DNA of 64,000 bases from Siderastrea radians. Its lineage: Eukaryota; Cnidaria; Anthozoa; Scleractinia; Rhizangiidae. Both the position numbers and the translations under genes were made by a program. The stretch lies in contig OZ024892.1 in the NCBI GenBank assembly GCA_964017195.1, forward strand, positions 16,605,871-16,669,870. Direction: 5' to 3'. The notes below the pieces were generated by a model that was given only the letters and a program-made list of their open reading frames with translations, was not told the origin of the DNA and did not search any database. Of the stretch, positions 1-62,521 are shown piece after piece. The number at the start of each line of letters is the position of its first letter. The stretch's first letter is position 1.

Positions 1-3000
1 TGTTGGAGATATTGGTTTTTGTGGGGTTCTGCCTGGCTTTTATCAAAGCTGAAAGTAATGCCGATGAAAAGTTTGACGATTCCCTTAATGATCAGCCTGC
101 GGAAGAATCTTTTCTTGAAGACGAGCCTGCCAACACCGCAGAAGAATCTCCACTGAACGAAGAGCCAAAGGAACAAGACCGCCGCCGACTCCTCCCCAGA
201 GTCATTATTCCCATCGGTATTCCTTCTAATATCAACAAGCTTTTCTTTAGAGTTTGCTACTGTTTCAGAGTTCGTTGCAAAGGTAAGTGCGATGTGTGTA
301 CTTTTAACACATTTTGATATCCGTTTTCATGGGTAAGGTTAACTGTCAAGTAATATATAGATTTAGCCAAGCCTAAAAGCGGATCCGCCAAGGAATAAAT
401 TGGTGTTCGTTTCTTAAAAATAGTCCTGAAGCTTTTCGGTCTGAAATATATTTCGGGGCTTTTTTGGGCCCGTTCGCTTCTGAAAGTGTTCCGAATTGTC
501 CTTCAATACTTTGGGGATCTGTTCTGTAAAACCAAGCTCGAAAGGTCATTCTAGAGGCTGAGCACGGCTTGATTTTTTTTTTCGGGTATCAAACTAAACA
601 CATATTTTACTCAAACAATTTGCGGCTGCAAATTGTTTGAAATTTGAGCGCTTTTAGAAATGCACAGAATTGTTTTTGGAAGCTTTTCGGATATAATGGG
701 TTTAAACTAACAACTGCTTCGCTTATAGTTTTTTAAATAACTGTTATATTTCGTTCTCTACCTCAGTAGAGACCATCAAGATTCAAAACAAACAAACACC
801 AAACACGCTTTAAATTATGCCGGCATAAGTTTTGCGGATGCGAAGTAAGCCTATATAAAGTTACCCGCTTTAAGGAACGCACAAAACTGTTTTCGGAAGC
901 TTTTGGAATAAAATAGCAACTGCTTCGCTTAACAGGTTATTACTATTGAAAACTTCTAGGACAAGAAAATCGACAATTGCACAAAGAGATGTACCCAAAA
1001 GTCAAAATTGAAAGCAATTATTCGTCGTAATCTCACTGAAGTGATGCTTGTACAGCTAGTTGACTTGCGACTGTACTTAGACCCACTGTTATGAAAAAAC
1101 AAACACAAAGTAATGGACAGAGAAATCATTTGTGAAAAAAATTTATTCGAAAACCCGTAAGTTTGCAAAATATTTAAGACTACATCTGTCACAAATCTGA
1201 GCGCGTTTTCTAATAATTTTTTAAAGTCAAAAGTAAATGACACATTTCTAATGACATAAATTAAATTCTCATTTCAAAACGTAATTTCTTTGACCGTAAT
1301 ACTCAAAATCGTTTACCTTAGACCCTTTTAAAAACTTCACTTACTCGGTTATGTTTCAGAACAGGGCAAGCTCTCCGCCGTGAAGAAAACAAAGCGATGA
1401 AGTCCTTTGAAGGCAGCTTTTGTAACTTGAACTTTTCGCCTTCTACTAGTATTCTTTTGAACTTTTTCTTTCCATTTATAGATATTAGATGTTTTTTTTT
1501 TTGTCAAGTACTTCAGTACTCTCGTGCAATCGTTTTGCTAAAGAAGCTTAAGCCTTTAAAGAAACCTCTTTTTGAAGAGCGACGATAGTCATGCGATTTC
1601 CCGCCAAGAAAAACGCCGGTTGCTCAAAAGCACCGCGCGATTTCCCAACAAGAAAAGATGGTATTCTATAACCCCCCCCCGTCGGGTTGTCTTGGGACTC
1701 CCCTCCCCCTCCCGCAGAGTCTGTGCGGACGGACGGACGTACGGACGGACGGACGGACGGACGGACGGACGGACGGACGGACAGACGGACGGACGGATGG
1801 ACGGTCACGTGACTATTATGTCACAACCAAAATGTCTTGGATCGATAGGTTACCAAATTTGCTTAGAAATGGAGCTTCGCTGGCGGGCTTTGCCCGCAGG
1901 CTCCGCTAAAATACACGCGTTTAAAAATAAAGTGAACTAGTCAACCAAACATTGCTATTTTGTTTTTACTACAATTAAGGAAACCCAAAAAGAACGGTTC
2001 AGTTTTGTTTAAAATTACTCTACCCGTTTTCTGAAACTGTAATGGCTGCGCATGTCTAGGTTGGAAATGGATTGCAACTTGAAACATCAGGCTAATGTTT
2101 TCATGTTTCTTTCTTGTTTCTTGGTAAAATTGCCAAAAAAAACTGACTATGGTTTGTTCTCTCTTTGAGAAAATCATTCGATTTCTTTTACTTGATGTTC
2201 TTGGAGCATTTCGTGAACAACAAAAGGTTTTTAATTTGACTTCAGCAAATTTTTCAACCAAAAGCGTGAAAAATCCCCGTGACGTAGCCACTTTAAAAAC
2301 ATCTTACACACATAGTGAAATTGTGAAAATTTTCTCCACTTTTAAATATGGTGTGTGTAAGACGTTAAAGGCTACACTTTGTATATGCCTTAACAGGAAC
2401 AATTACAAATTAAGAGGTAACAGAGAACATGTCGCACTTGTATCGCTAGTTAACTTTGATAATAGTTGCATGATTTTAACGCGGTTTTCAACTGAGTGTA
2501 TCTTAAAACCGAAACCAAAGCGACTACTCTAACCAATCACACCAAAAACAAACAATGAATTGAACCAATCATTATTCAAGCAAATACAGGTAATTGGCGT
2601 CAAGCGCGGGAAAACGCGTGCGATCAAGACACGATTGGTTTTAGGTTTACAACTTATTGGTTGAGAAAGTGGCGCTAGCAATCAGAGATTTCCGATTACA
2701 GGAACAAACAGCAATTTTGCGCGTATAGTACCAAGCAACCGTACCAACATTGCAACATTACAAATTTTGGAGCATTTTGCCATTTTTCCATGGCTTTCTG
2801 CGGCCCGGCACAATTGCAAATAGCTCAAAACCACGTCTTAAGAATGTTGCGCTCGCTCAAGTATCTCAACCCTGAGAGAATTAGAAGATTATCCAAGGAC
2901 TAAGCTGAAAGATTGAATTGAATTTGGAGTTTTCATAAGTTGATCCAATAAATTCAGCATCAGCTAACACTGAGGAAGCGGTCATGTATGAAATGCAAAT

Positions 3001-3529
3001 TAATTATAAATCGGAAATCTCTATTTAAACCAATCGCTGTGCGAAAAAGGCAATCGCGATTTACTTTCGACACAATTGAAAACCGCTCTAAATACATCAA
3101 ATTTATTGATCTTAGGGCAGTTTACAATTGAGCATCGTAAAACCAAACGAAAGCAATTACTCTAAGCGATCAAAAGAGGTAATGGACTCAATTGAAAACG
3201 GCGTCTAAAATAAAAACTATTTATCAGCTCATTATCGAGGTAGTGCTTCGCTTCACATACGCCAATTGGCTTATAATATAAAGTGCAATGTCTTAGAAGT
3301 TACATCGTTAATATACACTTCAATTTCTGTTTTATCCCACAAGACACAATTCCGCTTTTAAATAGAAAGTTTTGTTTTATTTTCAGTTCCAGGCATGCGC
3401 CCAGGGTTCAAAGGATGGGTCACACCCTACCAATCAGGCTACGTTGTGATCAACAACCTTCTTTACTATTTCTGGAACTGCAGTCCAAAGATTGTACCGG
3501 TTACTCGTCGTCCGCCGCCCCGCGGTTAG
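1..3529 (+). CDS. P1: secreted cationic four-cysteine peptide precursor (5' partial)
   Basis: The window opens two bases into the third codon, so the start codon, noncoding exon and promoter lie outside. The first visible exon runs to 282 and stops at a GTAAGT donor. It encodes a signal-peptide core (LEILVFVGFCLAFIKA), an acidic propiece with 17 Asp/Glu against two Lys, a DRRR run, and a mature start LLPRVIIPIGIPSNIN followed by FRVCYCFRVRC. The last exon starts at 3387 after TTTTCAG and splits a Val codon (phase 1). It encodes PGMRPGFKGW, then NCSPK, and ends in RG at stop 3527-3529. The region after DRRR has no Asp or Glu. Function is unknown; charge segregation and four cysteines fit a processed antimicrobial or toxin-like secreted peptide. 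The intron carries an insertion (about 354-1909). Family membership is clear by comparison with P4-P6. Confidence 0.8.
354..1909. mobile_element. Insertion of about 1.55 kb in the P1 intron, possibly Helitron-like
   Basis: In P5 the intron reads directly from GTCAAGTAA into AGTACACGG (near 55,655-55,668). In P1 these flanks are split by about 1.55 kb. The right end has a GC-rich hairpin (GCGGGC, TTT loop, GCCCGC at 1883-1897) and then CTAA about 10 bases later, which recalls the 3' end of Helitrons. No Rep or helicase coding is visible, so it would be non-autonomous. The edges are placed by comparison with P5 and may be off by a few bases; classification is tentative. Confidence 0.45.
1727..1805. 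repeat. (ACGG)n microsatellite
   Basis: An almost pure tetranucleotide run of ACGG/CGGA lies inside the intron insertion. It generates repetitive open frames on both strands (SVRPSVRP and TDGRTDGR types) that are not genes. Confidence 0.95.
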
Positions 3530-7257: not shown

Positions 7258-8295
7258 TTAGCCGCGGCTGACAGGACGTTTGGTTGGAGTGGGACGTGGC
7301 CTTACAGGTCTTGGGGTGCAGTTGTGGCACACGTACAGCCTGTTATTGATCACGACATAACCTGAATGGCCGACCACAATCCAGCCTTTGAACCCTGGCC
7401 TCATGCCTGGAACTGAAAAGAAAAAATGTTACATCAAGCCGAATTTTTGAAAACAGGGCCCAATTGTTCAAAAGCCGGTTAACACTAAACCGAGATTAAA
7501 AGTTAACTTAGGTTCCTACTTCTCTTGCTGAAAAGAGTTTTCACCGCTAATTTTGAGTGGCTGTTTGATAGCAACCATGCAAAGTCAAAAAACAAAGGGG
7601 GGGGGGGGAGAGAACTTAAAGGAATCCTCATCGTTTAGCCATAATAATGAATTCAAAATTGGCACTAATCCCGGGTTAGCTTAATCCTGCTTTGAACAGC
7701 TATGCCCAGGATATAAAAACTCGACTAGTCCTTCTAGTACGGTGAATCGTACATAAAAGCAAATATCATAACCAACGACATAATTTAACCAAAATACATG
7801 ATTATCACTTTGCGACTTCTCGGATTCTTTAGTTAGTCTTTCGAAGAGGAAGTTTGATAGGCTAACACAGGTTCATATGTTCGGTTTCTTTAACTTAAAA
7901 TTTAGGTCACAGAATATTTTGGCAAAGTAACCTTTTTCACCGAAACGATCCTTTCGTTGCCCCTAAATATAGCGTAACTGCGTTAAAAGTACACAAAACG
8001 TTACTTACCATAGCAACGTAATCTGAAACAGTACCAAACCCTGAAGAAAGCACTGTTGATATTGGAAGGAATGCCAATGGAAATAATGACTCTGGGGAGG
8101 AGTCGGCGGCGGTCTTGTTCCTTTGGCTCCTCGTTCAGTGTAGATTCTTCTGCGGTGTTGGAAGGTTCATCCTCAAGAAAAGATTCTTCCGCAGGCTGAT
8201 CATTAAGGAAACCGTCCTGCGTTTCATCGGTATTACTTTCAGCTTTTATAAAAGCCAAGCAGCCCCACAAAAACCAGTATCTCCAAAAACCGCAT
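7258..8295 (-). pseudogene. P2: frameshifted copy of the secreted peptide gene
   Basis: On the minus strand the coding exon runs from ATG at 8295 to the donor after 8009, and the last exon from 7412 to stop 7258-7260. Relative to P6, two bases are missing in the signal-peptide region (around plus 8263-8265), so the ATG frame soon stops. Past the lesion the normal frame continues through the acidic propiece, DRRR and the last exon. A further oddity: the first conserved cysteine is Trp (FRVWYC), while the last exon gains one (YVCHNC where P6 has YVFYNC). The last exon ends RPVSRG like P6, marking a subfamily distinct from P1/P3/P4/P5. It is probably non-functional unless another start or splice restores the signal. 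Confidence 0.75.
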
Positions 8296-11828: not shown

Positions 11829-13736
11829 TTTCTGTATTGTATTTCAGGCGAACGGGCAGCCCCCCGGTAGGGTGAGTGCAATGGCTCCCGGACCTAACGT
11901 CTGATCCCACTCGAGGCAGGGGAGTGCAATGCCAACGAAGTGGGTTCATCCTGAAACGGAAGGGCACCAGGCCGCCAAACTCGCCGGGATGTCGAACCCC
12001 GCCTCCCAAACATTAAGGCACACTACGGACACATACGGAGAAGACATTACAAAGGGCCACCAACCTCAGAGTACAACCAATGAAGGCGACCCTTTGGAAG
12101 GTGGTACCCTCACATAAAACAAGAGACAACATCGACAAGACGCGTGCTGAACAATCGCAGAATCCTCCACAAGAGGATTCGTTGAAGTCCAACACCACAC
12201 AGATCACGGCGATGGACTAGCCGATGCAGGACTGAGGGCCGCAATGATGGCATGGTAATCCTCGACAGATCAGCTGTGGGAATCCAAGTACTGCGAGAAT
12301 TCCTCACCGTAGCCGTAGCGGGGTGCGGAGGCGAAACTGCCGGGGTGGGAACAGAAACAGATTGGGGAGGCCCAGCAGGGACCCGCTCCCGCACACTGGG
12401 GGTACCGGACACCTGCATCCCAGGGGTGGCAGATGGTTCCTGGATGGTGGGCTTTCCCGAACGAGCACGCCGAATGGCACGGATTTCCTCCCATTGCAGC
12501 GTGTCCGTCCACACCTCCTGATGAGACTTCAACAGGCGACTGTTTGACCCATCGCCCTCATCGGTGACCACAAGGGCATCGGTGAGGTCCAGGGTGTAAA
12601 CATGGGAGGAAGATGGTACTTTGGCGGGAGCGCCGGAACCCTGACGGGACCTCTTGCGCTTCCTTCGCCCTCCAGCCCTGGTGCTACGCGGGGAACTCGG
12701 AGAGCCCAAAACAGAGACCGAAGCCTCAGCCAGGATCTCCTCATCCCCGGACAACAACTCGCCATCTGACGCGGCCGAATAGGAACTCTCCGAGACAAGC
12801 TCGACATCATTAGCGGTCTCTTCTGCAGGTGCGTCTCCAGGGGGACTGGAGTTGGCACCCTCAGTACCGGCCGCGGCAGCGGGGGCTACAGGTTGCCCTG
12901 AAGCCGGAGCCGCTGGGGCGGGAGCCTTCTTACGGGCCGGCTTCGGAGCAGGGCCATCCCAGGCACGGCGACAGTCGCGAGCGACATGGCCAGGTTGACG
13001 GCAGCGACGGCAGACCCCATTGAGCGGACACTCCTTTCCACGATGGCAACGGGCGCTGCAAATGGGGCACCACGGGGGTTGACGACGGTACCAGATGCGG
13101 CAGTCGAAGCCAGCCAGACGGATGAGATTGGGGATGTCCTTTGACAGGGACATCTTGACGACTCGGGAGCCGTCAAAAAGCCCAGGAAAGCCATCGTGCT
13201 CCGAACGGCGGATGGAATGGACCTCGCCAAAGGGACGCAGAGAGGCTCGCAAGGCGTCGTCCGTAACTTCAGACGGAAGGTCCCGAACGTAAACCAAACG
13301 AGACCTCTGTTCAGCGGCGGTGACGCGTATGCGGTGGCCGTTGAACTCGAAACTGCTCAGGAGGACGTCGTCACAGGAGGCAACATCCTTGAAGGTTAAA
13401 CGGACCGCCCCATTGCGAAGAAACTGTACAGTCTCCAGCTTGGAGCGGTCCAAAACGCCAACCAGTGTAGGCAGGACATCACACGCGCCGATGTTACGGT
13501 AAACTTCCGGCGGGAAGAAAGCTATCAAACTGTTAGGGCACTCGACCAGCATACTTCAAAAAGTTAAGCCAGGCACGAGCGCGGTCACAAATTGGTTGGG
13601 TGACCAAAGAGAAGCGAATAAAACTCGCTAAAACCTCCTAAGCGAAAGCCAAGAAGGCGACGCTCACCAAAGTTGGACACAACCGAAGAGCAATACTCGA
13701 AAGAGTAGGGCCTCCGGCCATACAAAGCCCGTGTCA
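11829..13736 (-). mobile_element. ORF1-only non-LTR retrotransposon insertion
   Basis: A GC-rich block of 1.9 kb splits the left subterminal array. GTCAAATGT is present at 11820-11828 and 13737-13745, a plausible 9 bp target duplication, although the host array contains similar words. The minus strand carries about 180 bases of 5' leader, an RRM-like plus CCHC ORF and about 280 bases of 3' tail. There is no endonuclease or reverse transcriptase, so it would be a non-autonomous or internally deleted copy. Confidence 0.65.
12110..13552 (-). CDS. Non-LTR retrotransposon ORF1-like protein with two CCHC zinc knuckles
   Basis: This intact 480-codon frame starts MLVECPNSLIAFF. Residues 86-118 (RLVYVRDLPSEVTDDALRAS and following) resemble an RNA-recognition fold. 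Two canonical CCHC knuckles follow: C162-x2-C165-x4-H170-x4-C175 and C181-x2-C184-x4-H189-x4-C194. The rest is a low-complexity Ala/Pro and acidic linker with an RRKRKR basic patch. This order is known from ORF1 proteins of L1/Tx1-type non-LTR elements, where the protein binds element RNA. Base composition is much more GC-rich than the surroundings, in line with a recent insertion. No ORF2 follows. It could alternatively be a captured cellular CCHC gene, but the insertion context argues for a retroelement. Confidence 0.75.
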   Translation of the reverse strand: MLVECPNSLIAFFPPEVYRNIGACDVLPTLVGVLDRSKLETVQFLRNGAVRLTFKDVASCDDVLLSSFEFNGHRIRVTAAEQRSRLVYVRDLPSEVTDDALRASLRPFGEVHSIRRSEHDGFPGLFDGSRVVKMSLSKDIPNLIRLAGFDCRIWYRRQPPWCPICSARCHRGKECPLNGVCRRCRQPGHVARDCRRAWDGPAPKPARKKAPAPAAPASGQPVAPAAAAGTEGANSSPPGDAPAEETANDVELVSESSYSAASDGELLSGDEEILAEASVSVLGSPSSPRSTRAGGRRKRKRSRQGSGAPAKVPSSSHVYTLDLTDALVVTDEGDGSNSRLLKSHQEVWTDTLQWEEIRAIRRARSGKPTIQEPSATPGMQVSGTPSVRERVPAGPPQSVSVPTPAVSPPHPATATVRNSRSTWIPTADLSRITMPSLRPSVLHRLVHRRDLCGVGLQRILLWRILRLFSTRLVDVVSCFM

Positions 13737-16093: not shown

Positions 16094-17118
16094 CTAAGCG
16101 AAGGCAATTTTCCTTGGAATAGGACAGACAACCATAACATTTTCTCCCTTGACTTTGTCAAACGCAGGTACAAACTTAGAATAAATTCTCTGCACAGGAA
16201 TGAATGAAGCTGGCCCTAGCTGTTCAAACAAATCTTTGCAGCAGACTTGCAATGGATTTCCAAAATACGATCTCTCTGGATGATCCTGGTACCAAATAAC
16301 ATATGCCAGCCAAAAAGGCTTGTATTCTCCGGCAACGCTGACATTTTGACGCATGTAAAACTGTACGCAACCTGCTCTTGGCTCTGAATCCCTGATATTG
16401 ATACGACCACCTGTCGAAACCCATGAAGCTAATACGTACGAAGAACGAATAGATCTGGAAAAAGAAGAGCCATACAGTTCACCACCGACTTCTACGGAAG
16501 AGAACCTTTCAAAATTTCCTACGATGCTTTCATCTTGCACATCCATATTCAGTTGCCGGTACATCTGTTTAAGATGTAGGATTTCGTGCTCCTCCAGGCA
16601 ATCCAGTCTTGATGGAGGTAAGCACTGGTAAGGGGAGACTTCATTCCAAAGATGCGTTGATTGCACGGCACCATGGCACAGCAAGGTAAGTGGACGAAAT
16701 GAGTGTATCGGTTCAAGCTCGATTTCTCCAAGTGTTCCTGTCTGGCCCACAGGCTTGAAAAACGGCTCAAATTCTTCTCGAAAAGATTCAGGAAGTGGGA
16801 TATCTTGAAGGGACTGATCGCGAACAAATTTCCTCATAAGTTGGAGTTCAATTGAACGATTGTTTGTTTGAAAACCTCCCATTATGCCATTGTACCTTTC
16901 AAACGAAAACAGCCAGAACGCGTAGACAGGACCAAAGTCTAGCACACACTCGCTAAGGTGAGTGTGCATGTGCATGTTTGGTGTCACTTCTTGGGATCCG
17001 TAAAGCCTTTGAAATTGCGTGCAAAATGTTTTTAAAAGGGAATCAGCCTTCATTACATCACGGACGGTGATAAATGGGCTACAAAGTATTTGGCATGCAA
17101 TAACAAAGGCTCTCCATA
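16094..17118 (-). CDS. EnSpm/CACTA transposase C-terminal exon (fragment)
   Basis: The minus strand is open from a TGA at 17147-17149 to stop at 16094, with an acceptor-like GGAAG at about 17119. The first ATG (17053) is internal: the upstream codons WRAFVIACQILCSPFITVRD continue the domain. The stretch TPNMHMHTHLSECVLDFGPVYAFWLFSFERYNG, read in two parts as TPNMHMHTHLSECVLDFG and VYAFWLFSFERYNG, then NNRSIELQLMRKF, matches the conserved DUF4218-like region of tnp2/EnSpm transposases. The more distal half (QFYMRQNVSVAGEYKPFW) is the usual trailing domain. The catalytic N-terminal part is not found between here and the right end, so the gene is truncated or decayed. It lies inside the CACTG-bounded element, which fits its family. 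Confidence 0.75.
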
Positions 17119-17278
17119 CTTCCAGGTAAAATAAGTGAAGTGTTATTCATTTAACCTAACACATTTATTCGAGTTAATCCCAATGACAAAGTAATCAGTC
17201 CAAAGTTGTTAATAGAGGAATAATTCCCGAATTTCAGGACAGCATCACAATTTCTTGGTGTGGGCCAGGGGTGTACCC

Positions 17279-23687: not shown

Positions 23688-25166
23688 ATGCGCTTGTTGG
23701 AGATATTGGTTTTTGTGGGGTGCTGCTTAGCTTTTATCCAGGCTGAAAGTAATACTGATGAAAAGTTGGACGATTCCCTTAATGATCAGCCTGCGAAGAA
23801 TCTTTTCTTGAGGATGAACCTGCCAAACCTCCAGAAGAATCTCCACTGAACGAAGAGGCAAAGGAACAAGACCGCCGCCAATTCATCCGACCGCCAATTC
23901 GTCGCACAATCACGATTCCCATCGGCATTCCTTCTAATATCAACAGCGGATTCTTTAGAGTTTGCTACTGTTTCAGACTTCGTTGCAAAGGTAAGTACGG
24001 CTGTGTGTACTTTTAACAGAGTTTGATATCCGTTTTCATGGGTAAGGTTAACTGTCAAGTAAGGTACAAGTATTGAAAAAAAAATTCACATATCGACAAA
24101 ACATTGGATGTACCAAACAATGGATTGCAACTTGAAACAATAGGCTAATGTTTTCAAGTTTCTTCCTTGTTTCTTTGTGTACGAGAAAAGAATAAGTCAG
24201 TACATTTTTCACCTAAAAACGTCAGTGAAAACTCCCCGTGAAGTAGCCCCTGCAGAAGAAGGGCTAAGCCCGAAACGCCTAGGATTATTAATCTTTTTTG
24301 GCACTTTTTGTCTTTATTATCGAAATAACTCTTGAATATTCTGTTAAGCGTCACGCAGCAAACAACATTTTAACATCAGAACATGTAGCACTTGTCTCGC
24401 TAGTTAACTGTGATAAAAGTTGCATTCTTTTCGACGTGGCTCTTAATTGAGTATCTTAAAACGAAACCAAAGAAATTGCTCTAACCAATCACAAAAAGAA
24501 CAATCAACAAAATGAACCAATCGTTACTCAAGCAATTACAAGTAACTGGCAACGAGCACGGTAAAACGCGTGCGATCAAGTTACGATTGGGTCTGGTTTT
24601 ACATCTCATTGATTGAGAAAGTGGCGCGAGCAATATCAACCAATCCTGAGCGAAAAAAAGCATACGCGATTTACCTTCGACACTCAATTGAAAACCGCTT
24701 TGAATACTACAAAGTTATTGATCTTAGAGCGGTTTTCAATTGAGCATCGCAAAAGCAAACCAAAGCAATCACTATAAACAATCACAACAGGAACAAAGAG
24801 CACAATGAACCGAAAGAAATAGAATTAATGCGCTGAATTGAAACCTGTTCTAGAATAAAAACTTTTGGTCAGTTCATTATCAAGGTATTCCTTTGCTTCA
24901 CGTATACCAACTGGCTACAGTGCAATGTCTCAGAAGTTACACTGTTAATATACACTTCAATTTCTGTTTTATCCCACAATTCACAATTCTGGTTTGAAAT
25001 AGTAAGTTGTGTTTTATTTTCAGTTCCAGGCATGCGCCCTGGGTTCAAAGGATGGGTCACACCCTACCAATCAGGCTACGTTGTGATCATCAACCTTCTT
25101 TACTATTTCTGGAACTGCAGCCCAAGGATTGTACCGGTTACACGTCGTCCGCCTACCCGCAGTTAG
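23688..25166 (+). pseudogene. P3: secreted peptide gene broken by a 1-base deletion
   Basis: ATG at 23688 opens a normal signal peptide (MRLLEILVFVGCCLAFIQA) and the start of the acidic propiece. One G is missing near 23794 compared with P4 (CCTGCGAAGAAT against CCTGCGGAAGAAT). The frame then shifts and stops at TGA 23847-23849. The rest of the exon (to donor at 23991) and the last exon (25024 to stop 25164-25166) are preserved in the original frame. The C-terminal Gly found in the other copies is Ser here (PPTRS). It is the direct paralogue of intact P4. Promoter, splice sites and AATAAA all remain, so it may still be transcribed. Confidence 0.8.
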
Positions 25167-34408: not shown

Positions 34409-37400
34409 ATGCAAATTGTATTTTCACGTGCATATATTGTACCAGGTAATCAGGTCTATTGTTTTCTTCTGTGTGCCACGTTGCTGCCTTGTTTTCGATG
34501 CCGTTCAAAATATTACGATGGCTTATCTAATCCGCTTCTAAACAAAATGAAGCCGTTTAGAATTGTCTCAAGCAGTGACATTACCAGTTCCCTAAGTAAT
34601 AAAAGCGACACGCCCTTGGAATGGAGTAAGTGCATCTTCTGTCAAGAAGACACCGGCAAGAAACTCGTGTGTCCAGCCGACTATGCCGATAGATTTAGAG
34701 GAGCTGGTTATAAAACTATCGCTGAAACGTTACAAGCATTCTATGACCTTGGTTGTTTGCCGGACGATGTCAATCTTACTCGCATGAACGATGGCGATGG
34801 GCTGGAGCAAACATTCGTAAGCAGGAGGGCGAAATTCCATACAACGTGCAGTCTCAAATTCAACAAAAATGAACTCCAACGTGCTACCAAACGGAAGACG
34901 AGTGCAGATGAAGAAATTTCTCCTGGAGCAAAGAAAAAATATACTCGTCAAAACCTCTTCCGAAAAGATGAAGCCGCTGATATTTGTTTCTTTTGTGACG
35001 AACCTGCAACAGATTCAAAACCACTCCATAAAGCCTCAACACTGGACCTTGACACTCGAGTGCGCCAGTGTGCAGTAAATGTGCAAGACCAGCGTTTAAT
35101 AGCGAAGCTCAGTGAAAGAGATTTAATCGCGAAGGGGGCAGAATATCACACCCAATGCCTAGTGTCATTGTACAACAGAGATAGGGATAGAGCAGGTACA
35201 TCACATGATCAAGACGACACGAACACGGCCAAGAGCACAGCATTTGCTGAACTTATTTCATATATACAAGATGCTCTTGAGGACAAAGATACCACCCCTG
35301 TTTTCCAACTATCGGAATTAAAGAAACTTTACGTTGACAGAGTGGATCAGCTTGGAGGGGACCCCTCAGTAGTTCACTCTACAAGATTAAAAGAGAAGAT
35401 TCTCAGCTACATTCCTCAATTGGAAGCATACAATGAAGGTCGAAATGTATTGTTTGTGGCCAGTGAAAACGTAGGAAAATCTCTAAGAAGATCGTGTCAA
35501 CTTGGCGATGAGAGTGAAGCTGTGCTCCTTTCTCGTGCCGCAAACATTATTCGCCAGGACATGCTGAGAAAAAAATGTGAACCATTCAGTGGTTCATTCA
35601 CAGAAGATTGCCAGGAAAATTCGGTTCCTCAATCTTTGCTGATGCTTATTTCAATGATCTTGTATGGTACAAGCATAAAGGACAACGCTAGCTACTTGTC
35701 ACAACCTGCTCTGTCTCTTTCGCAATTGATAACGTATAACAGTTGTGTGCGCCGGCGTCAACAACCATCTTCAAACACCAGGCACTTCGAACAACGAGAG
35801 ACGCCCCTGCCATTATTTCTTGGTGCATTAGTACACACAAAAACAAGATCAAAAGATCTAGTGGATACACTTTACAAGCTGGGATTATCTGTTTCATATG
35901 ACCGTGTCCTAGGATTGTCTGCAGACCTTGGTAACTCTGCTATTAGCCACTTCGAGACAGTTGGAACTGTTTGCCCACCTACACTGAACATTGGTGTGTT
36001 CACGACATCAGCAGTCGATAATGTCGATCATGATCCAACAGCAACTAGTGCACATGGATCCTTCCATGGAACAGGTATATCACTGTTCCAGCATCCCGAC
36101 ACTGAAAATCGTGGAACAGAGCAAACACGCGTTTCTATCTCCAGGTCTGGCAAGAAAGTTTCAAAACTACCGGACAGCTATACACTTGTACCGGCAGCTT
36201 CTGTTGCAAAGGACGAGCCTCCTGTTCCAGAAGTTTGTGGACTGAAACAACCCAGCTGCAGTCTGATGAATAATGCTGTAGCAGAAGAGAATGACTGGTG
36301 CGATCATCTCAGCAAGATTATCGATGAAGGTAATTACGACAGTACCAGTGGTAAGGATTTGCACATATCCTGGGCAGCATACCACTCAAGAAGGCAACAA
36401 CTAGAAGAGACCCCCATTCTTGGCCCTGCAGCAGTCAGCGCCCTTCTCCCTCTTTTCCCGAATGACTCGAAGTCAGTAGCGATGATTCGACATTCCATGA
36501 ATGTGGTGAAAAAGGCTGTGGCAGTTCTTAATCCTGGACAAATTCCCGTGATCACATTTGATCAACCGCTTTTCAAGATTGCAAAGCAAATCCAGTGGAT
36601 GTGGCCAGAAGAATATGGGGAGGAGTCATTTGTAGTAATGTTGGGTGGCCTACACATCAAGATGACATTGCTAAAGGCACTTGGAGATTTTTTGGATGGC
36701 AGTGGCTGGACGTCAGCACTAGTGCAAGCTGAAATAGCGACAGCAGGAACTTCGAATTCGTTCCTGAAAGTTGCGCATGTCAAGAGAACCGCCCGTGCAC
36801 ACCAGATTACAGCCTGCGCTCTCTATAAGCTTCGACAGGCATCGTACGTTGAGTGGCAAACGAATCAGCTAGGATGTAGCAGTGAATCGTTCGAAGAATG
36901 GTGCGAACAGAGAGCCCTTCAAAGTCCACAGTTCCATTTCTGGCAGCTTGTGCTGAGTATTGAGTGGGAAGTACTGACCTGGGACAGATCAATCCACGAA
37001 GGCAACTTCCTTTTGTATGTAGAAGCTTTGACAAGGCTTCAGTGGCTGTTCCATTCTCTTGACCACTACAACAACGCTCGTGCGAGTGCCATTCACCTGC
37101 GTGACATGGTTATTCTTCGCGAGAAACACCCCAGAATTTTTGAAGCATTTTGCAAGGGAAAGTTCACCGTTAACAAGACACAACGAGCATTCTCTAGGAT
37201 GGCTATAGATGAAAGCCATGAGCAGAACAACGCCTGCGTGAAAGGAGATGGAGGAGCAGTGGGCCTAACCGAGAACCCATCGGCACTACTGCGATGGATG
37301 GTGTCTGGACCTGAGATGGCGAGGATTATTGGCGAATTTCGCACCGTATTGGACAAGAAGGAAACAGTTTCACAGCTTCATCACCACGAGGACCAGCCAG

Positions 37401-39341
37401 GTGATTTGATTTAACTTATCAATTTTTTTCCTAATATTTTCACCGTTTTAGGATATCTCCAGTCTGTCGTTACCGCTGAAATACAAGAAACTAAAAACAG
37501 TTTTTAAAATATTTTATAATAGCTTTTAAGCTATATATTAACAGGAATCAATATGATAATTCCACAACGATGACATCATATTTTTTTTCTTTTTCTTAGC
37601 AATACAAGCATCGTTCCTCAAGAATGTGAAGGCTTTGGTTGAAACCATGGACAATATGGGCAACCCATTCTCTGATACTAGTGGTGATCTCTTAGTTCTT
37701 GATACTCGTGAGGTAATGGATGCAGCAGTCCACAATTCTGTCCGCAATTTGCAAGAGATTGGCAAACGTCAATGCAACGAGTTCTTTAGCAGGCGATTAG
37801 TAGAACGCACGACTCCACTCAGTGACAGAATACCAAAGAACAATTTGAGTTTATTCAGCTGGCGTCCTGATAAAGCAAAAACCCGCACACAGGAGCAGCG
37901 TCTGTCAATGAAAAGGGACCGGCATTTGTTCGCAACTTTATATATCGCCAGTCAAGTGCGCGATGCTGACCTTGAAGAGTTTTTCCAACATGAAAACCAG
38001 TCGTGGCCACCTTCAATATCTGACTACGGCAAGTTGAGATCAGTTACAAAGTCTGACCTACTTCCATGCCTGGAAGATCTCCTGCCGCAAACTGACGAAG
38101 CGAACAACTTAGTTCCTGAAGTGGACATGATTGTTCTCGATGGTGCAGTAATAGTCAACATGATTAAACCTGCCAAGTCCAATACATTCGCAGAGTATGT
38201 CAGTGAATTTATGACATACATACGAAGTCAGTTCACGAAACCTGTTCAACGAGTCGATGTAGTGTTTGATGACTACAGAGATGCGAGTCTCAAGGCGGCC
38301 ACAAGGATGAAGAGGGGAACGGGTGTGCGCATCAGAGTGGAAGGAAGAAAGAAACTTCCTAAAAACTGGCATCAGTTTCTGCGAGAAGACGGAAACAAAA
38401 CAGAGCTCTTTAATCTTCTCAGCAACAACGTAACAGCGGAGACTTTTCCTGGTGTGGTGGTGATGACTAGAGGAAAAGAGCTTCGCTGCTCGGAGGTAGT
38501 TAACGAACAGGGGCTTTCGCCTTGCACGCACGAAGAGGTGGACACACGGATGCTACTGCATGCCGCAGATGGTGCCAAACAAGGATTCAAAAGAATCTTG
38601 GTTAGGACTGTTGACACAGATGTTGTTGTTCTCGCTGTCAGTACCGCTAACAAACTGGCATGTGAACAGTTAATTGTGTCATTTGGAACAGGAAAGACAT
38701 CCCGGTACCTAGATGCAACTCTCATGGCGCGACAATTGGGCAGTGTCAAGTGCGACGCATTACCTGCTTTCCATGCACTCACCGGGTGCGACACTACGTC
38801 AGGTTTTGCAGGAAGAGGAAAGCGTACAGCATGGTCGGTGTGGAATAAGTTCAGTGATGTCACGCCCGCTCTACTAACACTTGCTCAAACACCAACAGAA
38901 GCACACATAGATGAGATCCTTCCTACCATCGAGAGATTCGTCATTCAGATGTATGACAAAGAAAGTTCTGATAGCAGTGTTAACAAGGCAAGACAAACTT
39001 TGTTCACACAGAAAGGCAGGGAGATAGAGAACATTCCACCAACAAAGGATGCCCTACGTCAGCACGTCCTTCGAACAGGATATCAGGCTGGTCATGTGTG
39101 GGGTCAGGCTCTCCTTAAAGAACCACAGCTACCTAGCCCAGACGAATTCGGCTGGAGGCGCCAAAATGATTCTTCTCAGTGGGAGGTGAAGTGGATGGAC
39201 CTGCCTCCTGCTGGTGCAGCTTGCCGTGCTGTAGTCAAGTGTGGATGCACTAAAGGATGCAAAGGGCGGTGCAGATGTGCTAAAGAAAATCTGCCGTGTA
39301 CAATGTTGTGCAAATGTGGTGGTTGTAAGCGCCTTGAATGA
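34409..39341 (+). CDS. Transposon protein: zinc-finger modules, candidate DDE core, XPG-like nuclease, CXC domain (two exons)
   Basis: Exon 1 is 34409-37400; the donor CCAG/GTGATT and acceptor TTTTCTTAG define a 199-base intron; exon 2 is 37600-39341. The phase-1 join keeps the frame, giving about 1,577 residues. The start is uncertain: ATG 34547 (MKPFRIVSSS) is a good alternative. Two C-x2-C...H-x2-C modules lie at C75/C78/H144/C147 and C193/C196/H247/C250. A candidate RNase-H-like transposase region has D718 (ITFDQPL), GGLHIKM near 749 and D934-E935 (IDESHEQNN). Exon 2 has motifs in XPG/FEN1 order: VLDGAVIVNM, VVFDDYRDASLK, THEEVDTRMLLHA, RTVDTDVVVLA and LTGCDTTSGFAGRGK. The end is a CXC cluster (CGCTKGCKGRCRC, then CKCGGCK). 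Both exons are open throughout, so the copy may be recently active. Domain names come from motif reading only. Confidence 0.8.
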
Positions 39342-43159: not shown

Positions 43160-44130
43160 TGTTCTTATGTGTGCAAAAATAAAAATCTTGCTAGTCAGTC
43201 CGTTTTAATCAGAAGAAAATATTCTGCAAACGTGACCCGCTTGTGCAACGCGGAAATTATTCAACCACGCAAATCTAGTCGCTTTCTACGTTGTTCTAGT
43301 AAAAGCCACGTATAAGCAACACTTGAAAGCAGATGACCGTTTTCAAACACAAAAGATTCTTAAGGTCACTACTTTATTTGTTTGTTTAAATACGTAAAAG
43401 CTACAAACAACCAATATAGTGGAAAAACTGGGAAACATTCTTTACAAACCAAGAACCAACCTGTTTACCTCCGATTTTAAAGGAGAAACTGCTAAATTTT
43501 GAAACTGCAATTAAGATTCGGGATAAGCAAACTTACCTAAAAAAAAACTTCTTCCGTTCAGTTCAGTTGGAATAAAATCATTTTGCTGTTAGGTTTTGAA
43601 CTTCACATAGTGCTGGTTTTATCGATAACTGACAAGGATCTTAACGCCACTCTTTTTTAACTTACAACTTAAAATTTATCTATATTCTGTGCTTTAAGTA
43701 TCTTTTTTTGTTAGAAAATAAAGATCATCATTATTGTAACTAACTCAGCGAAACCCAACACTCGAAAAAAGTCCTGTGATGTGGAGTGATGACGCCTGAA
43801 AACAACTGCATCGATAGTGTCAAATAAACTAGTATGTAGAGTTTACGTCTTACTGGCTTGAAAAATGTATATCAGTCGGTTTCGTGTTGTCTTCATTTCT
43901 GTATGACAAATTGTAGGATACTTGAAGAACGTTTAATGTGGTTTTATAATATGGGTTGTTTGCACCTTTTGACGTATGTGAACGCGGAATTTCTCAGACC
44001 TGAAGTGACGATCATCGACAGTGTTTTAAGTTTTAATTATGTTTTGTGGTTTTAAGTATTGCTAATACCAACCTATTACGCAATTAATGAAGAAAAACAA
44101 CTTTAAGTCAGTTCTGTTTTGTGCTCACGG

Positions 44131-44948: not shown

Positions 44949-46421
44949 ATGCGCTTGTTGGAGATATTGGTTTTTGTGGGGTGCTGCTTAGCTTTTATCC
45001 AGGCTGAAAGTAATACTGATGAAAAGTTGGACGATTCCCTTAATGATCAGCCTGCGGAAGAATCTTTTCTTGAGGATGAACCTGCCAAACCTGCAGAAGA
45101 ATCTCCACTGAACGAAGAGGCAAAGGAACAAGACAGCCGCCAATTCATCCGACCGCCAATTCGTCGCACAATCACGATTCCCATCGGCATTCCTTCTAAT
45201 ATCAACAGCGGATTCTTTAGAGTTTGCTACTGTTTCAGACTTCGTTGCAAAGGTAAGTACGGCTGTCTGTACTTTTAACAGAGTTTGATATCCGTTTTCA
45301 TGGGTAAGGTTAACTGTCAAGTAAGGTACAAGTATTGAAAAATAAACTTCACTTATCGACAAAACATTGGATGTACCAAACAATGGATTGCAACTTGAAA
45401 CAATAGGCTAATGTTTTCAAGTTTCTTCCTTGTTTCTTTGTGTACGAGAAAAGAATAAGTCAGTACATTTTTCACCTAAAAACGTCAGTGAAAACTCCCC
45501 TTGAAGTAGCCCCTGCAAAAGAAGGGCTAAGCCCGAAACGCCTAGGATTATTAATTTTCTTTTTGCACTTTTTGTCTTTGTTATCGAAATAACTCTTGAA
45601 TTTTCTGTTAAGCGTCACGCAGCAAACAACATTTTAACATCAGAACATGTAGCGCTTGTATCGCCAGTTAACTGTGATAAAAGTTGCATTCTTTTCGACG
45701 TGGCTCTTAACTGAGTATCTTAAAACGAAACCAAAGAAATTGCTCTAACCAATCACAAAAAGAACAATCAACAAAATGAACCAATCGTTACTCAAGCAAT
45801 TACAAGTAATTGGCAACAAGCACGGTAAAAAGCTTGCGATCAAGTTACGATTGGGTCTGGTTTTACATCTCATTGCTTGAGAAAGTGGCGCGAGCAATAT
45901 CAACCAATCCTGAGCGAAAAAAAGCATACGCGATTTACCTTCGACACTCAATTGAAAACCGCTTTGAATACTACAAAGTTATTGATCTTAGAGCGGTTTT
46001 CAATTGAGCATCGCAAAAGCAAACCAAAGCAATCACTATAAACAATCACAACAGGAACAAAGAGCACAATGAACCGAAAGAAATAGAATGAATTGAAACC
46101 TGTTCTAAAATAAAAACTTTTGGTCAGTTCATTATCAAGGTATTCCTTTGCTTCACATATACCAACTGGCTACAGTGCAATGTCTCAGAAGTTACACTGT
46201 TAATATACACTTCAATTTCTGTTTTATCCCACAATTCACAATTCTGGTTTGAAATAGTAAGTTGTGTTTTATTTTCAGTTCCAGGCATGCGCCCTGGGTT
46301 CAAAGGATGGGTCACACCCTACCAATCAGGCTACATTGTGATCAACAACCTTCTTTACTATTTCTGGAACTGCAGCCCAAGGATTGTACCGGTTACTCGT
46401 CGTCCGCCAACCCGCGGTTAG
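44949..46421 (+). CDS. P4: secreted cationic four-cysteine peptide precursor (intact)
   Basis: Exon 44949-45252 and exon 46279-46421, phase-1 junction, 148 residues. ATG follows the intron-1 acceptor by nine bases. Signal peptide MRLLEILVFVGCCLAFIQA, acidic propiece (DEKLDDSLNDQPAEESF and onward), then a junction that differs from the family: DSRQFIRPPIRR instead of DRRRLLPR, so processing may occur at a different basic site. The shared core IPIGIPSNIN and FRVCYCFRLRC follows, then PGMRPGFKGW, YYFWNCSPR and a C-terminal TRG. Cysteines after the signal: two in CYC, one in RLRC, one in NCS. No Asp or Glu after the propiece. A C-terminal Gly could donate an amide. Likely secreted defence or venom-type peptide; unproven. 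Confidence 0.85.
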
Positions 46422-54292: not shown

Positions 54293-54650
54293 GTAAGTGA
54301 CTTTTATGTAATTTTGACTTGTTGCTTACTGTCTAACCCTAAGGTTGGTTCAGCGAATCTTTTATGCAGGGAAAGGGAGACTCTTTCTTGCAGAAAAAAG
54401 TTTGCAAATTTTACAGTGTGCAATATTTATTTCAGCTTCTACATTTATAAGGGTTAAAGATTTTACCCCTTTTTACGTTGAAATTTGAATTGAACTGAAC
54501 TATACATGAAAGCTGATTGAGCAGAATTCAATTTCTTGTACCATTTAAGGTCCAACACCTTTTAAGTTGTAAGCGAATTCCTGACGAGTGACTCTAATAT
54601 TTCAATGAAAGCTATTGATTACTACTGTTACGTTGTGTTGTTTACTACTC

Positions 54651-55100
54651 TGTACAAGGTGGTTTTAACTTTTGAGTCGGTGGATGAAATCCTAAAGTGT
54701 GGCCATTCAATTGAAAGCTACTGAGTAGTACTTTCCTGTGGTGCTGTTTATTATGCTGTACAAGGTGGTTCTAACTTTTGAGTCGGTGGATGAAATCCTA
54801 AAGTGTGGCCATTCAAATGAAAGCTACTAAGCAGTACTTTCCTGTGGTGCTGTTTATTATGCTGTACAAGGTGGTTCTTACTTTTGAGTCGGTGGATGAA
54901 ATCCTAAAGTGTGGCCATTCAAATGAAAGCTCCTGAGCAGTACTTTCCTGTGGTGCTGTTTATTATGCTGTACAAGGTGGTTCTAACTTTTGAGTCGGTG
55001 GATCAAATCCTAAAGTGTGGCCATTCAAATGAAAGCTACGAGCAGCTTTCATAAGTGGTGCTCTTTATTATGCTGTTAAAGGCTGCACCAACTTTTGAGT
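54651..55100. repeat. 106 bp minisatellite array in P5 intron 1
   Basis: TGTACAAGGTGG starts units at 54651, 54757, 54863 and 54969, an exact 106-base period; a degenerate fifth unit follows. Other copies lie in P3/P4 introns and, inverted, at 29,925-30,400. Confidence 0.9.
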
Positions 55101-55325: not shown

Positions 55326-57399
55326 ATGCGCTTTTTGGAGATATTGGTTTTTGTGGGGTTCTGCCTGGCTTTTATCAAAGCTTTTATCAAAGCTTTTATC
55401 AAAGCTTTTATCAAAGCTGAAAGTAAAGACGAGCCTGCCAACACCGCAGAAGAATCTCCACTGAACGAAAAGCCAAAGGAACAAGACCGCCGCCGACTCC
55501 TCCCCAGAGTCATTATTCCCATCGGCATTCCTTCTAATATCAACAGTGCTTTCTTTAGAGTTTGCTATTGTTTCAGAGTTCGTTGCAAAGGTAAGTGCGA
55601 TGTGTGTACTTTTAACGGAGTTTGACATCCGTTTTCATGGGTAAAGTTAACTGTCAAGTAAAGTACACGGCTTGAAAAATAAAGCGAACTAGTCAACCAA
55701 ACATTGCTATTCTGTTTTTACTGCAATTAAGGGAACCAAAAACGAACGGTTAAGTTTTGTTGAAAATTACTCTACCCGTTTTCTGAAACTGTTAGTAATG
55801 GCTGCGCATGTCTAGGATGGAAATGGATTGCAACTTGAAACATTAGGCTGATATTTTCACGTTTCTCTCTTGTTTCTTGGTAAAATTGCCAAAAACTGAT
55901 TATGGTTTGTTCTCTGTTTGAGAAAATCATTCGATTTCTTTTACTTGATGTTCTAGGAGCATTTCGTGTACGACAAAAGGTATTGAATTTGACTTCAGCA
56001 AATTTTTCAACCAAAAACGTGAGAAATCCCCGTGAGGTAGCCACCTTAAAAACATCTTACGCAGCTCGCGAAATTTTGAAAATTTTCTCGATTTTTTTCA
56101 TATGGTGTGTGTAAGACGTTAAGGGAAACACTTATATTTGCCTTTTCAGGAACAATTACCAGTTAAGGGGTAACACGAGAACATGTAGCACTTGTGCCGC
56201 TAGCTTGCTTTGATAATAGTTGCATTCTTTTTAACGCGGTTTTCAACTGTGTATCTTAAAACCGAAACCAAAGCGATTACTCTAACCAATCACAGCAGAA
56301 ACAAACATCAAAATACACCAATAATACTCAAGCAAATACAAGTAATTGGCGTCAAGCACGGTGAAACGCGTACGATCAAGACACGATTGGTTTTACAACT
56401 CATTGGCGGGTTGAGAAAGTGGCGCGAGCAATTAGACAGTTGCGATTTACAGGCACAAACGGCAATATTGCGCTAATAGTACCAAGCAACAGTACCAATA
56501 TTGCAATATTACAAATTTTGGAGCATTTTGCCATTTTTCCGTGGCTTTCTGGGGCAAATATGCCAAAATGTCAAAAGTATGAAACTTGTTAAAGCCGTTC
56601 CGCACAATTGCAAATAGCTCAAAACCACGGCTTCCTTTTCGCCCACGTGTCAGGCCTGTCTTCAGTATGTTGCGCTCGCTCAACTATCCCAGCCCTGAGA
56701 GAATTAGAAGTCTATCCAAGGACTAAGCTGAAAGATTGAATTGAATTTGGAGTTTTCGTAACTTGATCCAATAAATTCAGCATCAGCTAACACTGAGAAA
56801 CCAGTCATGTATGAAATGCAAATTACGTATAAATCGGAAATCTCTATTTAAACCAATCGCTTTGCGAAAAAAGCAAACGCGATTTACTTTCGACACTCAA
56901 TTGAAAACCGCTCTAAATACATCAAATTTATTGATCTTCGAGCAGTTTACAATTGAGCCTCGTAAAACCAAATCAAAGCAATTACTCTAAACGATAAAAA
57001 CAGGAAGAAAAACCACAATGAGCCAATCAGAACTCCAACGAAATAGAAGTAATGGGCTCAATTGAAAACGGCGTCTAAAATAAAAACTATTTATCAGTTT
57101 ATTATCGAGGTAGTGCTTAGCTTCACGTACGCCAATTGACTAAATATTTACAGTGCAATGTCTTAGAAGTTACATTGTTAATATACACTTCAATTTCTGT
57201 TTTATCCCACAAATCAAAATTCCGCTTTTAAATAGGAAGTTTTGTTTTATTTTCAGTTCCAGGCATGCGCCCAGGGTTCAAAGGATGGGTCACACCCTAC
57301 CAATCAGGCTACGTTGTGATCAACAACCTTCTTTACTATTTCTGGAACTGCAGCCCGAAGATTGTACCGGCTACTCGTCGTCCGCCGACCCGCGGATAG
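55326..57399 (+). CDS. P5: secreted cationic four-cysteine peptide precursor with AFIK repeat
   Basis: Exon 55326-55590 and exon 57257-57399, phase-1 junction, 135 residues. ATG lies six bases after the acceptor TTTTTCGCAG. The signal region MRFLEILVFVGFCL is followed by four AFIK units from a 12-base tandem repeat. About 20 residues of the acidic propiece are lost (the text jumps to ESKDEPANTAEESPLNEKP). DRRR and the mature region are as in P1: LLPRVIIPIGIPSNIN, FRVCYCFRVRC, PGMRPGFKGW, YYFWNCSPK and end PPTRG. Four lysines now interrupt the signal's C-terminal side, so secretion or cleavage may be altered. All splice sites, TATA box and AATAAA are present. Function as for the family, unproven. 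Confidence 0.82.
55368..55415. repeat. Four copies of a 12 bp in-frame repeat (Ala-Phe-Ile-Lys)
   Basis: GCTTTTATCAAA is repeated four times without mismatch; the other genes have one copy. Confidence 0.95.
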
Positions 57400-57485: not shown

Positions 57486-57491
57486 AATAAA
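57486..57491 (+). terminator. P5 polyadenylation signal AATAAA
   Basis: Context GTGACTAATAAAGAG, 87 bases past the stop. Confidence 0.75.
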
Positions 57492-60344: not shown

Positions 60345-62521
60345 TTAGCCGCGGCTGACAGGGCGTCTGGTTGGAGTGAGACGTGGCCTTACAGGTCTTG
60401 GGGTGCAGTTGTAGAACACGTACAGCCTGTTATTGATCACGACATAACCTGAATGGCCAACCACAATCCAGCCTTTGAACCCTGGCTTCATGCCTGGAAC
60501 TGAGAAGAAAAAATGTTACATGAAGCCAAATTTCCGAAAACAGGGCCCGGTTGTTCAAAAGCCGGTTAACACTCAACCGAGATTAAAGGCCCACCTTCAC
60601 CCAAACGGCCTTGCGACCGTTTGTTATTGTTTTCAAATGGTTCTATTGTTTTCCTCGAATATTCCTGCGAGCGAGAAAATTGTCACGTAAATTCAAAACA
60701 AATCGGAGGAGCCATATCGCATCGATTTACTTTGCGAAGTTGCCCCAATCTACGGCCTCAATTTACAAATCTTTAGGCTTTTATTTAAAGCATTTACTCC
60801 CCCAAAATGTTGGAATTGTCTGATGTTCGCCATGTGAAAGTTTCAATGACATAGAAAGCGAGAAATAAGTTTGTTATGTTCGTACTTCTAAGCGCAAGCA
60901 AGCGATCTCGGCAGAAGACTCAAACAGTTACTTGGACATTCGATTGTTTTAGTCTGCAAATTGCACTCTGATTGTCTTGTAAGGTAACAGTGATTTTAAA
61001 GGCCCCTCCTAATCATTATAGAGGTTGGTCTGAAGGGAAATAAACAGCGTATACGACTAAATAGCAACTCACTGATTATCGCTCGCAAAATAGCACTTGT
61101 CCGGTGACTCCCGCATTAAGCCAGCCGTACGTGTGTACTAATCGATCAAATCTCCCTGGACCTATGATTAACTGAGAAACTAGTTATTTTAATTTAATCG
61201 TACGACGATAGATACAGCAGAAGAACAAGAAAACAATCCTGCAAAACCATTCATTTATTACACACTCGCGAGCCGCTCTGTTTACATCGCGCGAATAAAA
61301 TCAAATCAAACGAATCAAACTTACTTGTCAAGGTCCCGCATCCAATACAATCAGGAATTTAAACAACATCACATCACAAGAGATCAACATCACAAGAGAT
61401 TCATAAAATATCTGTTTCTTTGCTTCATAACACAAGCTTCTCTGAGACGAATACTGACAATATTTTCCTTCGGCATAACCGTGCAGTATCTTCAACTGCG
61501 AGGTATCATTTGGCAGGAAACATATTGGACGAAGTAAGAGCGAAAAAAATACGTTTGGCCGGCTCAGTCACAAAATAATTCCAGGAAACAATAGCCTGAT
61601 AATTGAAGAATAACTTCCTGCATGCTTTTGGACGATTTTCGACAAGATGGCTCCGGAAGAAATGGATTTTGAAAGAAAACCCGCTCAGAAACAATTTCGT
61701 GTTACACGAAATTCATAAAACAGCAAGCGCGGTGCGCAAAGCCTTTTGGGTGAAGGTGGGCTTTAAGTTCCTTTTTCTCTTGCTGAAAAGAGTTTTCATT
61801 GCTAACTTTGAGTGGCTGTTTGATAGCAACCATGCAAAGTCAAAACAAAAGGGGGGGAGAACTTAAAGGAATCCTCATTGCTTAGCGATAATAATGAATT
61901 CAAAATTCGCACTAATCCCGGGTTAGCTAATCCTGTTTCTGCCCAGGATATAAAAACCCGACTAGCCCTTCTAGTATGGTTACTCCTACATAAAAGCAAA
62001 TATCATAACCAACGACATAATTTATCCAAAATACACAATTATCACTTTGCGCCTTCTCGGGTTGTTTAGTTAGCGTCTCCAAGAGGAAGTTTTATAGGCT
62101 AACACAGGTTCATATGTTTGGTTTCCTTAACTTAAAATTTAGGGCGCAGAATATTTTGGGCAACGCAAACGATCCTTTCGTTGCCCCTAGATTTAGGGTA
62201 ACTGCGTTAAAAGTACACAAAACGTTACTTACCATAGCAACGCAATCTGAAACAGTAGCAAACCCTGAAGAAAGCACTGTTGATATTAGAAGGAATACCG
62301 ATAGGAACAATGACTCTGGGGAGGAGTCGGCGGCGGTCTTGTTCTTTTGGCTCCTCGTTCAGTGGAGATTCTTCTGCGGTGTTGGAAGGTTCGTCCTCAA
62401 GGAAAGATTCTTCCGCAGGCTGATCATTAAGGGAATCGTCGAACTTTTCATCGGTATTACTTTCAGCTTTGATAAAAGCCAAACAGAATCCCACAAAAAC
62501 CAATATCTCCAAAAAACCCAT
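60345..62521 (-). CDS. P6: secreted cationic four-cysteine peptide precursor, second subfamily (intact)
   Basis: On the minus strand, exon 62521-62233 and exon 60499-60345, phase-1 junction, 147 residues. Start MGFLEILVFVGFCLAFIKA, six bases after acceptor TTCTCCGCAG. The acidic propiece (DEKFDDSLNDQPAEESF and onward) ends in DRRR. The mature part has LLPRVIVPIGIPSNIN, FRVCYCFRLRCY, then an exon that departs from P1/P4/P5: PGMKPGFKGWIVVGHSGY, NNRLYVFYNCTPR and a Pro/Arg-rich tail ending RRPVSRG. It keeps four cysteines after the signal and has no Asp or Glu there. Convergent with P5. The intron contains a 1.2 kb TTAA element absent from P2. Likely functional gene; role unknown. Confidence 0.83.
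60587..61762. mobile_element. Non-autonomous TTAA element in the P6 intron
   Basis: TTAA at 60583-60586 and 61763-61766 flanks ends AGGCCCACCTTCACCCAAACG and the inverted TTTTGGGTGAAGGTGGGCT. Y1 (about 7,495-7,520) lacks it. 1,176 bp without a recognisable transposase; piggyBac or Kolobok type by target site. Confidence 0.8.

What the first reader, a model, noticed from the sequence alone, without database searches (positions are those of the whole stretch)
1..62521. Undescribed-looking multigene family of charge-segregated, four-cysteine secreted peptides
Six loci share a signal peptide, an acidic propiece (17 Asp/Glu in P1), a basic cleavage run (DRRR in most) and a cationic region with no Asp or Glu and four Cys (CYC, RC, NC). 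The CYCFRVRC core recalls beta-hairpin antimicrobial peptides only superficially. Precursors with an anionic propiece and cationic product are known for antimicrobial peptides and cnidarian toxins, but I recognise no family with this sequence.
Basis: partly seen in the sequence, partly recalled or inferred. Interest (0 to 1): 0.9.

Follow-up and report, generated by a model that had tools for sequence, protein, structure and literature searches.

The report
New coral family of two-charge peptides
Six related genes, four of them apparently intact, encode small secreted-looking proteins with an acidic front half and a strongly basic, cysteine-containing back half; relatives occur elsewhere, one of them in a named stony coral, and they look like precursors of defence peptides for which the searches made here found no description.

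Summary
Each of the six loci has a coding exon (signal-like start, acidic propiece, basic run, CYCFRxRC or, in P2, WYCFRLRC) that ends at a GGTAAGT donor; a second coding exon lies 0.6-3.1 kb downstream (VPGM-PGFKGW...GYVVINN-LY...NC), followed by a stop and AATAAA. Spliced, P1, P4, P5 and P6 give an 81-86-residue product with 14-16 Lys/Arg, no Asp/Glu and four Cys. P2 and P3 carry frameshifts. Four of 44 database relatives carry the two exons joined at the same place, one of them an annotated 'hypothetical protein' of the stony coral Oculina patagonica. P6 against P1, P4 and P5 shows purifying selection, and its second exon is far more diverged than its first, which suggests gene conversion. 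No Pfam, NCBIfam, PDB or Rfam match was significant; none of twelve peptide words occurs in the held papers. Additions: a Lys/Arg-Arg-Gln junction in 21 of 44 relatives, a C-terminal Gly suited to amidation in 8 of 10 second exons, a Pro/Arg-rich tail in most of them. Best reading: lineage-restricted precursors of cationic host-defence peptides, working like Hydra arminins. Function is untested.

The parts
1..282 (+). P1 first coding exon (5' end off the window)
3387..3529 (+). P1 second coding exon, type A; AATAAA at 3616
8009..8295 (-). P2 first coding exon, broken (frameshift in signal-peptide region; WYC in place of CYC)
7258..7412 (-). P2 second coding exon, type B, open; AATAAA at 7151
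23688..23990 (+). P3 first coding exon, broken by a frameshift in the propiece
25024..25166 (+). P3 second coding exon, type A, ends in Ser; AATAAA at 25336
44949..45252 (+). P4 first coding exon, intact, five residues longer than P1 and P6 after the cleavage site
46279..46421 (+). P4 second coding exon, type A; AATAAA at 46514
55326..55590 (+). P5 first coding exon, open; 12-base array (55368-55418) in place of much of the acidic propiece
57257..57399 (+). P5 second coding exon, type A; AATAAA at 57486
62233..62521 (-). P6 first coding exon, intact
60345..60499 (-). P6 second coding exon, type B, longer Pro/Arg tail; AATAAA at 60238
43489..43759 (+). Stretch holding a conserved noncoding island upstream of P4 (counterparts: P3 from 22228, P5 from 53526, P6 from 63481 minus, P2 from 9285 minus; P1's lies off the window): candidate promoter or 5' untranslated exon
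   Evidence: role inferred

Best explanation
A multigene, lineage-restricted family of secreted cationic host-defence peptide precursors in a stony coral or close kin. The signal peptide directs secretion; the acidic propiece neutralises the basic part in the secretory pathway; a proprotein convertase cuts at the basic run; the released peptide, about 80-95 residues with a net charge of about +10 to +20 and in most members two potential disulphides, acts on microbes at the epithelium, most simply by binding and disturbing anionic membranes. Shown: gene structure, the splice join in relatives, charge segregation, purifying selection between P6 and the other intact copies, duplication. Inferred: the host group, secretion, cleavage, amidation, disulphides, antimicrobial target.
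For: Exon join found in 4 of 44 relatives (P0022, P0029, P0030, P0039). No Asp/Glu from the basic site to the C-terminus in 8 of 8 spliced proteins (P1, P4, P5, P6 and those four). Propiece net charge against product: -15/+15 (P1), -15/+16 (P6), -13/+14 (P0022). A dibasic pair near the boundary in all of the 44 relatives but P0001 and P0002 (by eye on the listing; P0019's lies a few residues on), followed by Gln as Lys/Arg-Arg-Gln in 21 of 44. C-terminal Gly in 8 of 10 second exons (P1, P2, P4, P5, P6, P0022, P0029, P0030; not P3 or P0039). More synonymous than non-synonymous change between P6 and P1, P4, P5. A paper on Hydra AMPs gives just this pattern for most of that animal's AMPs: bipartite charge, cysteines, clustered paralogues, taxonomic restriction (PMC10945409, passages).
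Against: No activity or peptide data and no expression data for the window. No homology to any proven AMP. P4, P0001 and P0002 lack a dibasic pair at the boundary, and P5's acidic propiece is weak (net -5), although P4 and P5 are open. Two exon-one-only relatives, P0014 and P0018, have one Asp just after the cleavage site. Cysteine number varies: three in P0029 and P0030; the first Cys is Arg or Ser also in P0020, P0031-P0035 and P0037; P0041-P0044 have one in the first exon. In the product part of the first exon P1 and P4 differ more at non-synonymous than synonymous sites (dN 0.194, dS 0.117; not tested). Folds were predicted with low confidence (mean pLDDT 59 and 52).
Confidence: 0.55

Rival explanations
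1. A venom or cnidocyte peptide family: same precursor logic, but the cationic product acts on prey or predators.
For: Precursors with signal, propiece and a cysteine-containing product in duplicated clusters are also usual for cnidarian toxins (recalled).
Against: No Pfam toxin family matched and no PDB match was significant. Told for completeness: 6 of the 10 chance-level PDB rows are named as large bacterial toxins (E 1.2-5.2, aligned to their repeat regions), 2 as antibody chains and 2 as cell-wall-binding repeat proteins. Three or four Cys in 81-96 residues with a loose Pro/Arg tail is unlike compact cnidarian toxin folds (recalled).
Confidence: 0.15
2. Neuropeptide or hormone precursor: Lys-Arg cleavage, N-terminal Gln (pyroglutamate) and C-terminal Gly (amide) are marks of regulatory peptides.
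For: Lys/Arg-Arg-Gln in 21 of 44; C-terminal Gly in 8 of 10 second exons.
Against: One long product of 81-96 residues per spliced precursor, not several short repeats; very high charge; many diverging paralogues.
Confidence: 0.12
3. A structural or mineral- or mucus-binding secreted protein, in which the acidic and the basic halves both matter.
For: Parts of the acidic half are themselves conserved in the family.
Against: A dibasic pair at the boundary in 42 of 44 relatives (by eye); no Asp/Glu after it in 8 of 8 spliced proteins.
Confidence: 0.1
4. Fragments spread by duplication or mobile elements, with no function.
For: The window holds large duplicated blocks and tandem repeats and at least one retroelement-like frame; two of six copies are broken.
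Against: pS well above pN between P6 and P1, P4, P5, shared splice sites and AATAAA in 6 of 6, joined exons in relatives, 44 relatives.
Confidence: 0.03

Closest known systems
Arminins of Hydra
   Same: Precursors with a negatively charged N-terminal part and a positively charged C-terminal part, paralogue clusters (PMC4820302 and PMC10945409, passages).
   Different: Arminins lack this cysteine framework (recalled), and their genes are stated to be confined to Hydra (PMC10945409). PMC4820302 calls the arminin C-terminal part scarcely conserved; here CYCF and GYVVINN in the product are among the best conserved parts of the window copies. Arminin sequences were not compared directly.
Periculins and HyCWR peptides of Hydra
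   Same: Biased charge halves and cysteines, related paralogues, clustered for periculin (PMC10945409, passages).
   Different: Different cysteine pattern (recalled for periculin); the paper reports no conventional cleavage site in HyCWR, whereas here a basic site is kept in 42 of 44 relatives (by eye).
Damicornin / AmAMP1 of stony corals
   Same: Coral antimicrobial precursors of similar length (107 and 117 residues in a table of PMC11820242).
   Different: They belong to an ShK-related family (title of a paper cited in PMC11269664 and PMC11820242; six Cys recalled). No ShK or other Pfam domain was found here.
Beta-hairpin AMPs (tachyplesin, protegrin, arenicin)
   Same: Short Cys/Arg/aromatic strand such as FRVCYCFRVRC; acidic proregion in some (recalled).
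   Different: No significant PDB match, longer product, extra second-exon domain. The resemblance is recalled only.

Membership tests
Arminin | Bipartite charge: acidic N-terminal half, basic C-terminal half | tested here: met
   (P5 weakly)
Arminin | Sequence homology to arminin | not tested
   No arminin sequence was compared directly; no Pfam or NCBIfam family matched significantly
Arminin | Confined to Hydra | tested here: not met
   the one named relative is a stony coral, Oculina patagonica
Damicornin/AmAMP1 (ShK-like) | ShK-type domain | tested here: not met
   no Pfam match beyond chance
Beta-hairpin AMP | Two-stranded disulphide hairpin | tested here: inconclusive
   Four short strands predicted in P0022 at 134-140, 149-155, 158-162 and 165-169, but mean pLDDT 59, pTM 0.23; P0030 52 and 0.18
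Beta-hairpin AMP | Sequence relation to a solved member | tested here: not met
   at E up to 10
Cationic host-defence peptide (functional class) | Kills or inhibits microbes | not testable with these tools
   bench assay needed
Cationic host-defence peptide (functional class) | Strong positive charge of the product | tested here: met
   net +10 to +20 in 8 of 8 spliced proteins (P4 is +12 there, from its second Arg pair, and +14 from the boundary)
Proprotein-convertase substrate | Dibasic pair at the charge boundary | tested here: inconclusive
   Present in 42 of 44 relatives (by eye) and in P1, P2, P3, P5, P6, but P4, P0001 and P0002 have only one Arg there

The most novel reading that the evidence does not exclude
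A two-module defence peptide not described before: a disulphide-stabilised beta-sheet head (CYCFRxRC...GYVVINN-LYFFWNC) fused to a proline/arginine tail, capped by pyroglutamate and amide in many members, with the first exon homogenised by gene conversion while the second diverges. Head and tail could have separate targets, membrane and an intracellular one as in proline-rich AMPs.
Probability: 0.12. Interest if true: 0.75.

Novelty: new variant of a known kind. Interest (0 to 1): 0.55.

Why it matters
Around 13 cnidarian AMPs are thoroughly characterised according to PMC11820242 (passage). A clustered family present in at least one named stony coral, if it is a defence family, would be a direct handle on how corals control their microbes. 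40 of the 44 database relatives are single frames that end at or shortly after the splice donor, so gene annotation probably misses or truncates this gene; the exon structure given here tells annotators what to look for.

Tried and rejected
Single-exon reading: rejected, since the tail after GGTAAGT differs by an indel and by stops between copies and relatives carry the spliced form. C-terminal YGK as an amidation signal: rejected for the same reason; Gly follows at the second place after the third Cys in 36 of 36 exon-one-only relatives (counted on the listing; P0041-P0044, of another pattern, left out), as a G|GT donor demands. Viral contigs and prokaryote genomes: no relative confirmed (16 and 38 pattern matches, none upheld by tblastn). 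Rfam at gathering scores: none. The two AlphaFold2 models were too uncertain for a fold search, which was not run. Chance-level matches set aside: Pfam LIAS_N and DUF3464 (E 0.08-0.16); PDB (E 8-10; E 0.75-0.81; E 0.44-8; E 1.2). Tree (one search was an earlier version of the script, which failed): 44 rows, P0041-P0044 dropped as too divergent; P0039 was cut by my trimming to 18 residues, so its place there means nothing; P0037 kept an untrimmed start; the fork that holds P1, P5 and P6 is unresolved. In one search the automatic site finder mis-placed the boundary for P4, P0001, P0019, P0038 and P0041-P0044 and found none for P0002 and P0035; the 8 of 8 statement for P4 rests.

The window's own genome could not be searched, so copy number outside the window is unknown; no tool named the species. 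That it is a stony coral or close kin is inferred from P0039 alone.
Full report
What is there. Six loci in the 64-kb window encode one protein family. Read as single frames they give a hydrophobic signal-like start, an acidic stretch, a basic run and CYCFRxRC (WYC in P2), then tails that disagree. The disagreement has a simple cause: in all six the frame meets GGTAAGT directly after RC-Lys or RC-Tyr, and the stretch behind it varies by an indel and stops as introns do. In the five copies whose upstream DNA is in the window, a pyrimidine-rich tract with AG lies a few bases before the ATG, so an upstream intron is likely.

The second exon. Aligning the DNA downstream of all six shows one shared island: a pyrimidine-rich tract and CAG, then an open frame in the right phase, a stop, and AATAAA 86-169 bases on. 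Introns are 596 to 3104 bases. Spliced products of P1, P4, P5 and P6 have four Cys (CYC, RC, NC) and no Asp or Glu after the basic run.

Support from elsewhere. Searches with the first exon alone found 6 and then 10 relatives. A profile of spliced proteins found 44 with E up to 10, 43 of them under 0.01, among 1680 candidates. Four carry the same join: P0022 (201 residues, contig of 2530 bases), P0029 and P0030 (contigs of 1030 and 966 bases), and P0039, 'hypothetical protein ACROYT_G004199' of Oculina patagonica, a stony coral. P0039 is a gene model in a 49-Mb contig, so may be a prediction. P0023, 87% identical to P0022 and from a 219-kb contig, reads on as FGKLISS at just that place, as expected of intron; its DNA was not seen. 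The source tag 'lgn' of P0022, P0029 and P0030 I take to mean assemblies of public reads (recalled, not checked); joined exons in short contigs point to cDNA. The other 40 relatives stop at or shortly after the donor.

Selection. P6 against P1, P4 and P5 gives more synonymous than non-synonymous change per site (Fisher 1.7e-6, 2.3e-7, 3.9e-8, not independent). Among the closer copies the signal is weak or absent: P1-P4 0.038, P4-P5 0.03, P1-P5 0.16, and in the product part of the first exon P1-P4 has dN 0.194 above dS 0.117, which may be noise or diversification. P4-P6 identity is 86% and 65% in the exons and 53% and 46% at the two intron ends; for the closer pairs P1-P4, P1-P5 and P4-P5 the 3' intron end is nearly as alike (88-91%) as the exons. 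Gaps between intact copies keep the frame: one of 12 bases in the second exon, 15 in the first exon of P4, and 10 plus 14 for P5.

Mosaic history. P1 and P6 differ at 21% of synonymous sites in the first exon but at 60% in the second (Fisher 1.4e-4; P4-P6 0.0089, P5-P6 0.029). With their intron ends at about 50% identity, gene conversion of the first exon between the two classes is the simplest cause; constraint on synonymous sites is not excluded. Second exons fall into type A (P1, P3, P4, P5) and type B (P2, P6).

Duplications. Blocks 1-9.2 kb and 55.3-63.4 kb are copies, as are 22.1-30.0 and 43.4-51.3 kb.

Features not in the finding. Lys/Arg-Arg followed by Gln in 21 of 44 relatives, which after cleavage would leave an N-terminal Gln able to form pyroglutamate; in the window only P3 has it. 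C-terminal Gly in 8 of 10 second exons. A tail rich in Pro and Arg after the last Cys: 9 Pro and 7 Arg/Lys in 29 residues of P0022, 5 and 6 in 19 of P6, 5 and 4 in 15 of P1; P0039 has little of it (3 and 1 in 14).

Function. The precursor logic is that of cationic defence peptides with a neutralising propiece. Most Hydra AMPs are described in much these terms in PMC10945409 (passages). Nothing here tests activity. Venom, neuropeptide and structural roles remain possible.

Against. P4 lacks a dibasic pair at the boundary; P5 has lost most of its acidic part; two relatives (P0014, P0018) have an Asp just behind the cleavage site; Cys number varies in relatives; structure prediction is weak; there are no expression data for the window itself.

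In print? Twelve words of the two exons occur in none of the held papers (figures are not held). Topic searches gave capped lists (25 of 136, 15 of 430, 2 of 2, 12 of 17, 12 of 448 and 10 of 242 papers), in which no title or shown start of an abstract describes this family. Passages only were seen of PMC4820302, PMC10945409, PMC11269664 and PMC11820242. Supplementary tables and most subscription papers were not seen.

Noticed in passing
12110-13555 (-): 481-residue frame with a CCHC zinc knuckle and an RRM match just above the cut-off, probably the first frame of a retroelement.
   Followed up: partly
34409-37414 and 37560-39341 (+): Two long frames (1001 and 593 residues) without a Pfam match at E 0.01, the second ending in a Cys-rich stretch; possibly one mobile-element or low-copy gene split by an intron.
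   Followed up: partly
16094-17146 (-): 350-residue frame, transposase-like by eye, no Pfam match at E 0.01.
   Followed up: partly
54604-55076: 106-base unit repeated 4.5 times directly upstream of P5.
   Followed up: no
55368-55418: Perfect 12-base array (4.2 copies) inside the P5 coding exon, between signal peptide and propiece.
   Followed up: partly
P0041-P0044 (database relatives): A divergent branch that lacks the CYC motif and has a single Cys in the first exon's product part.
   Followed up: no
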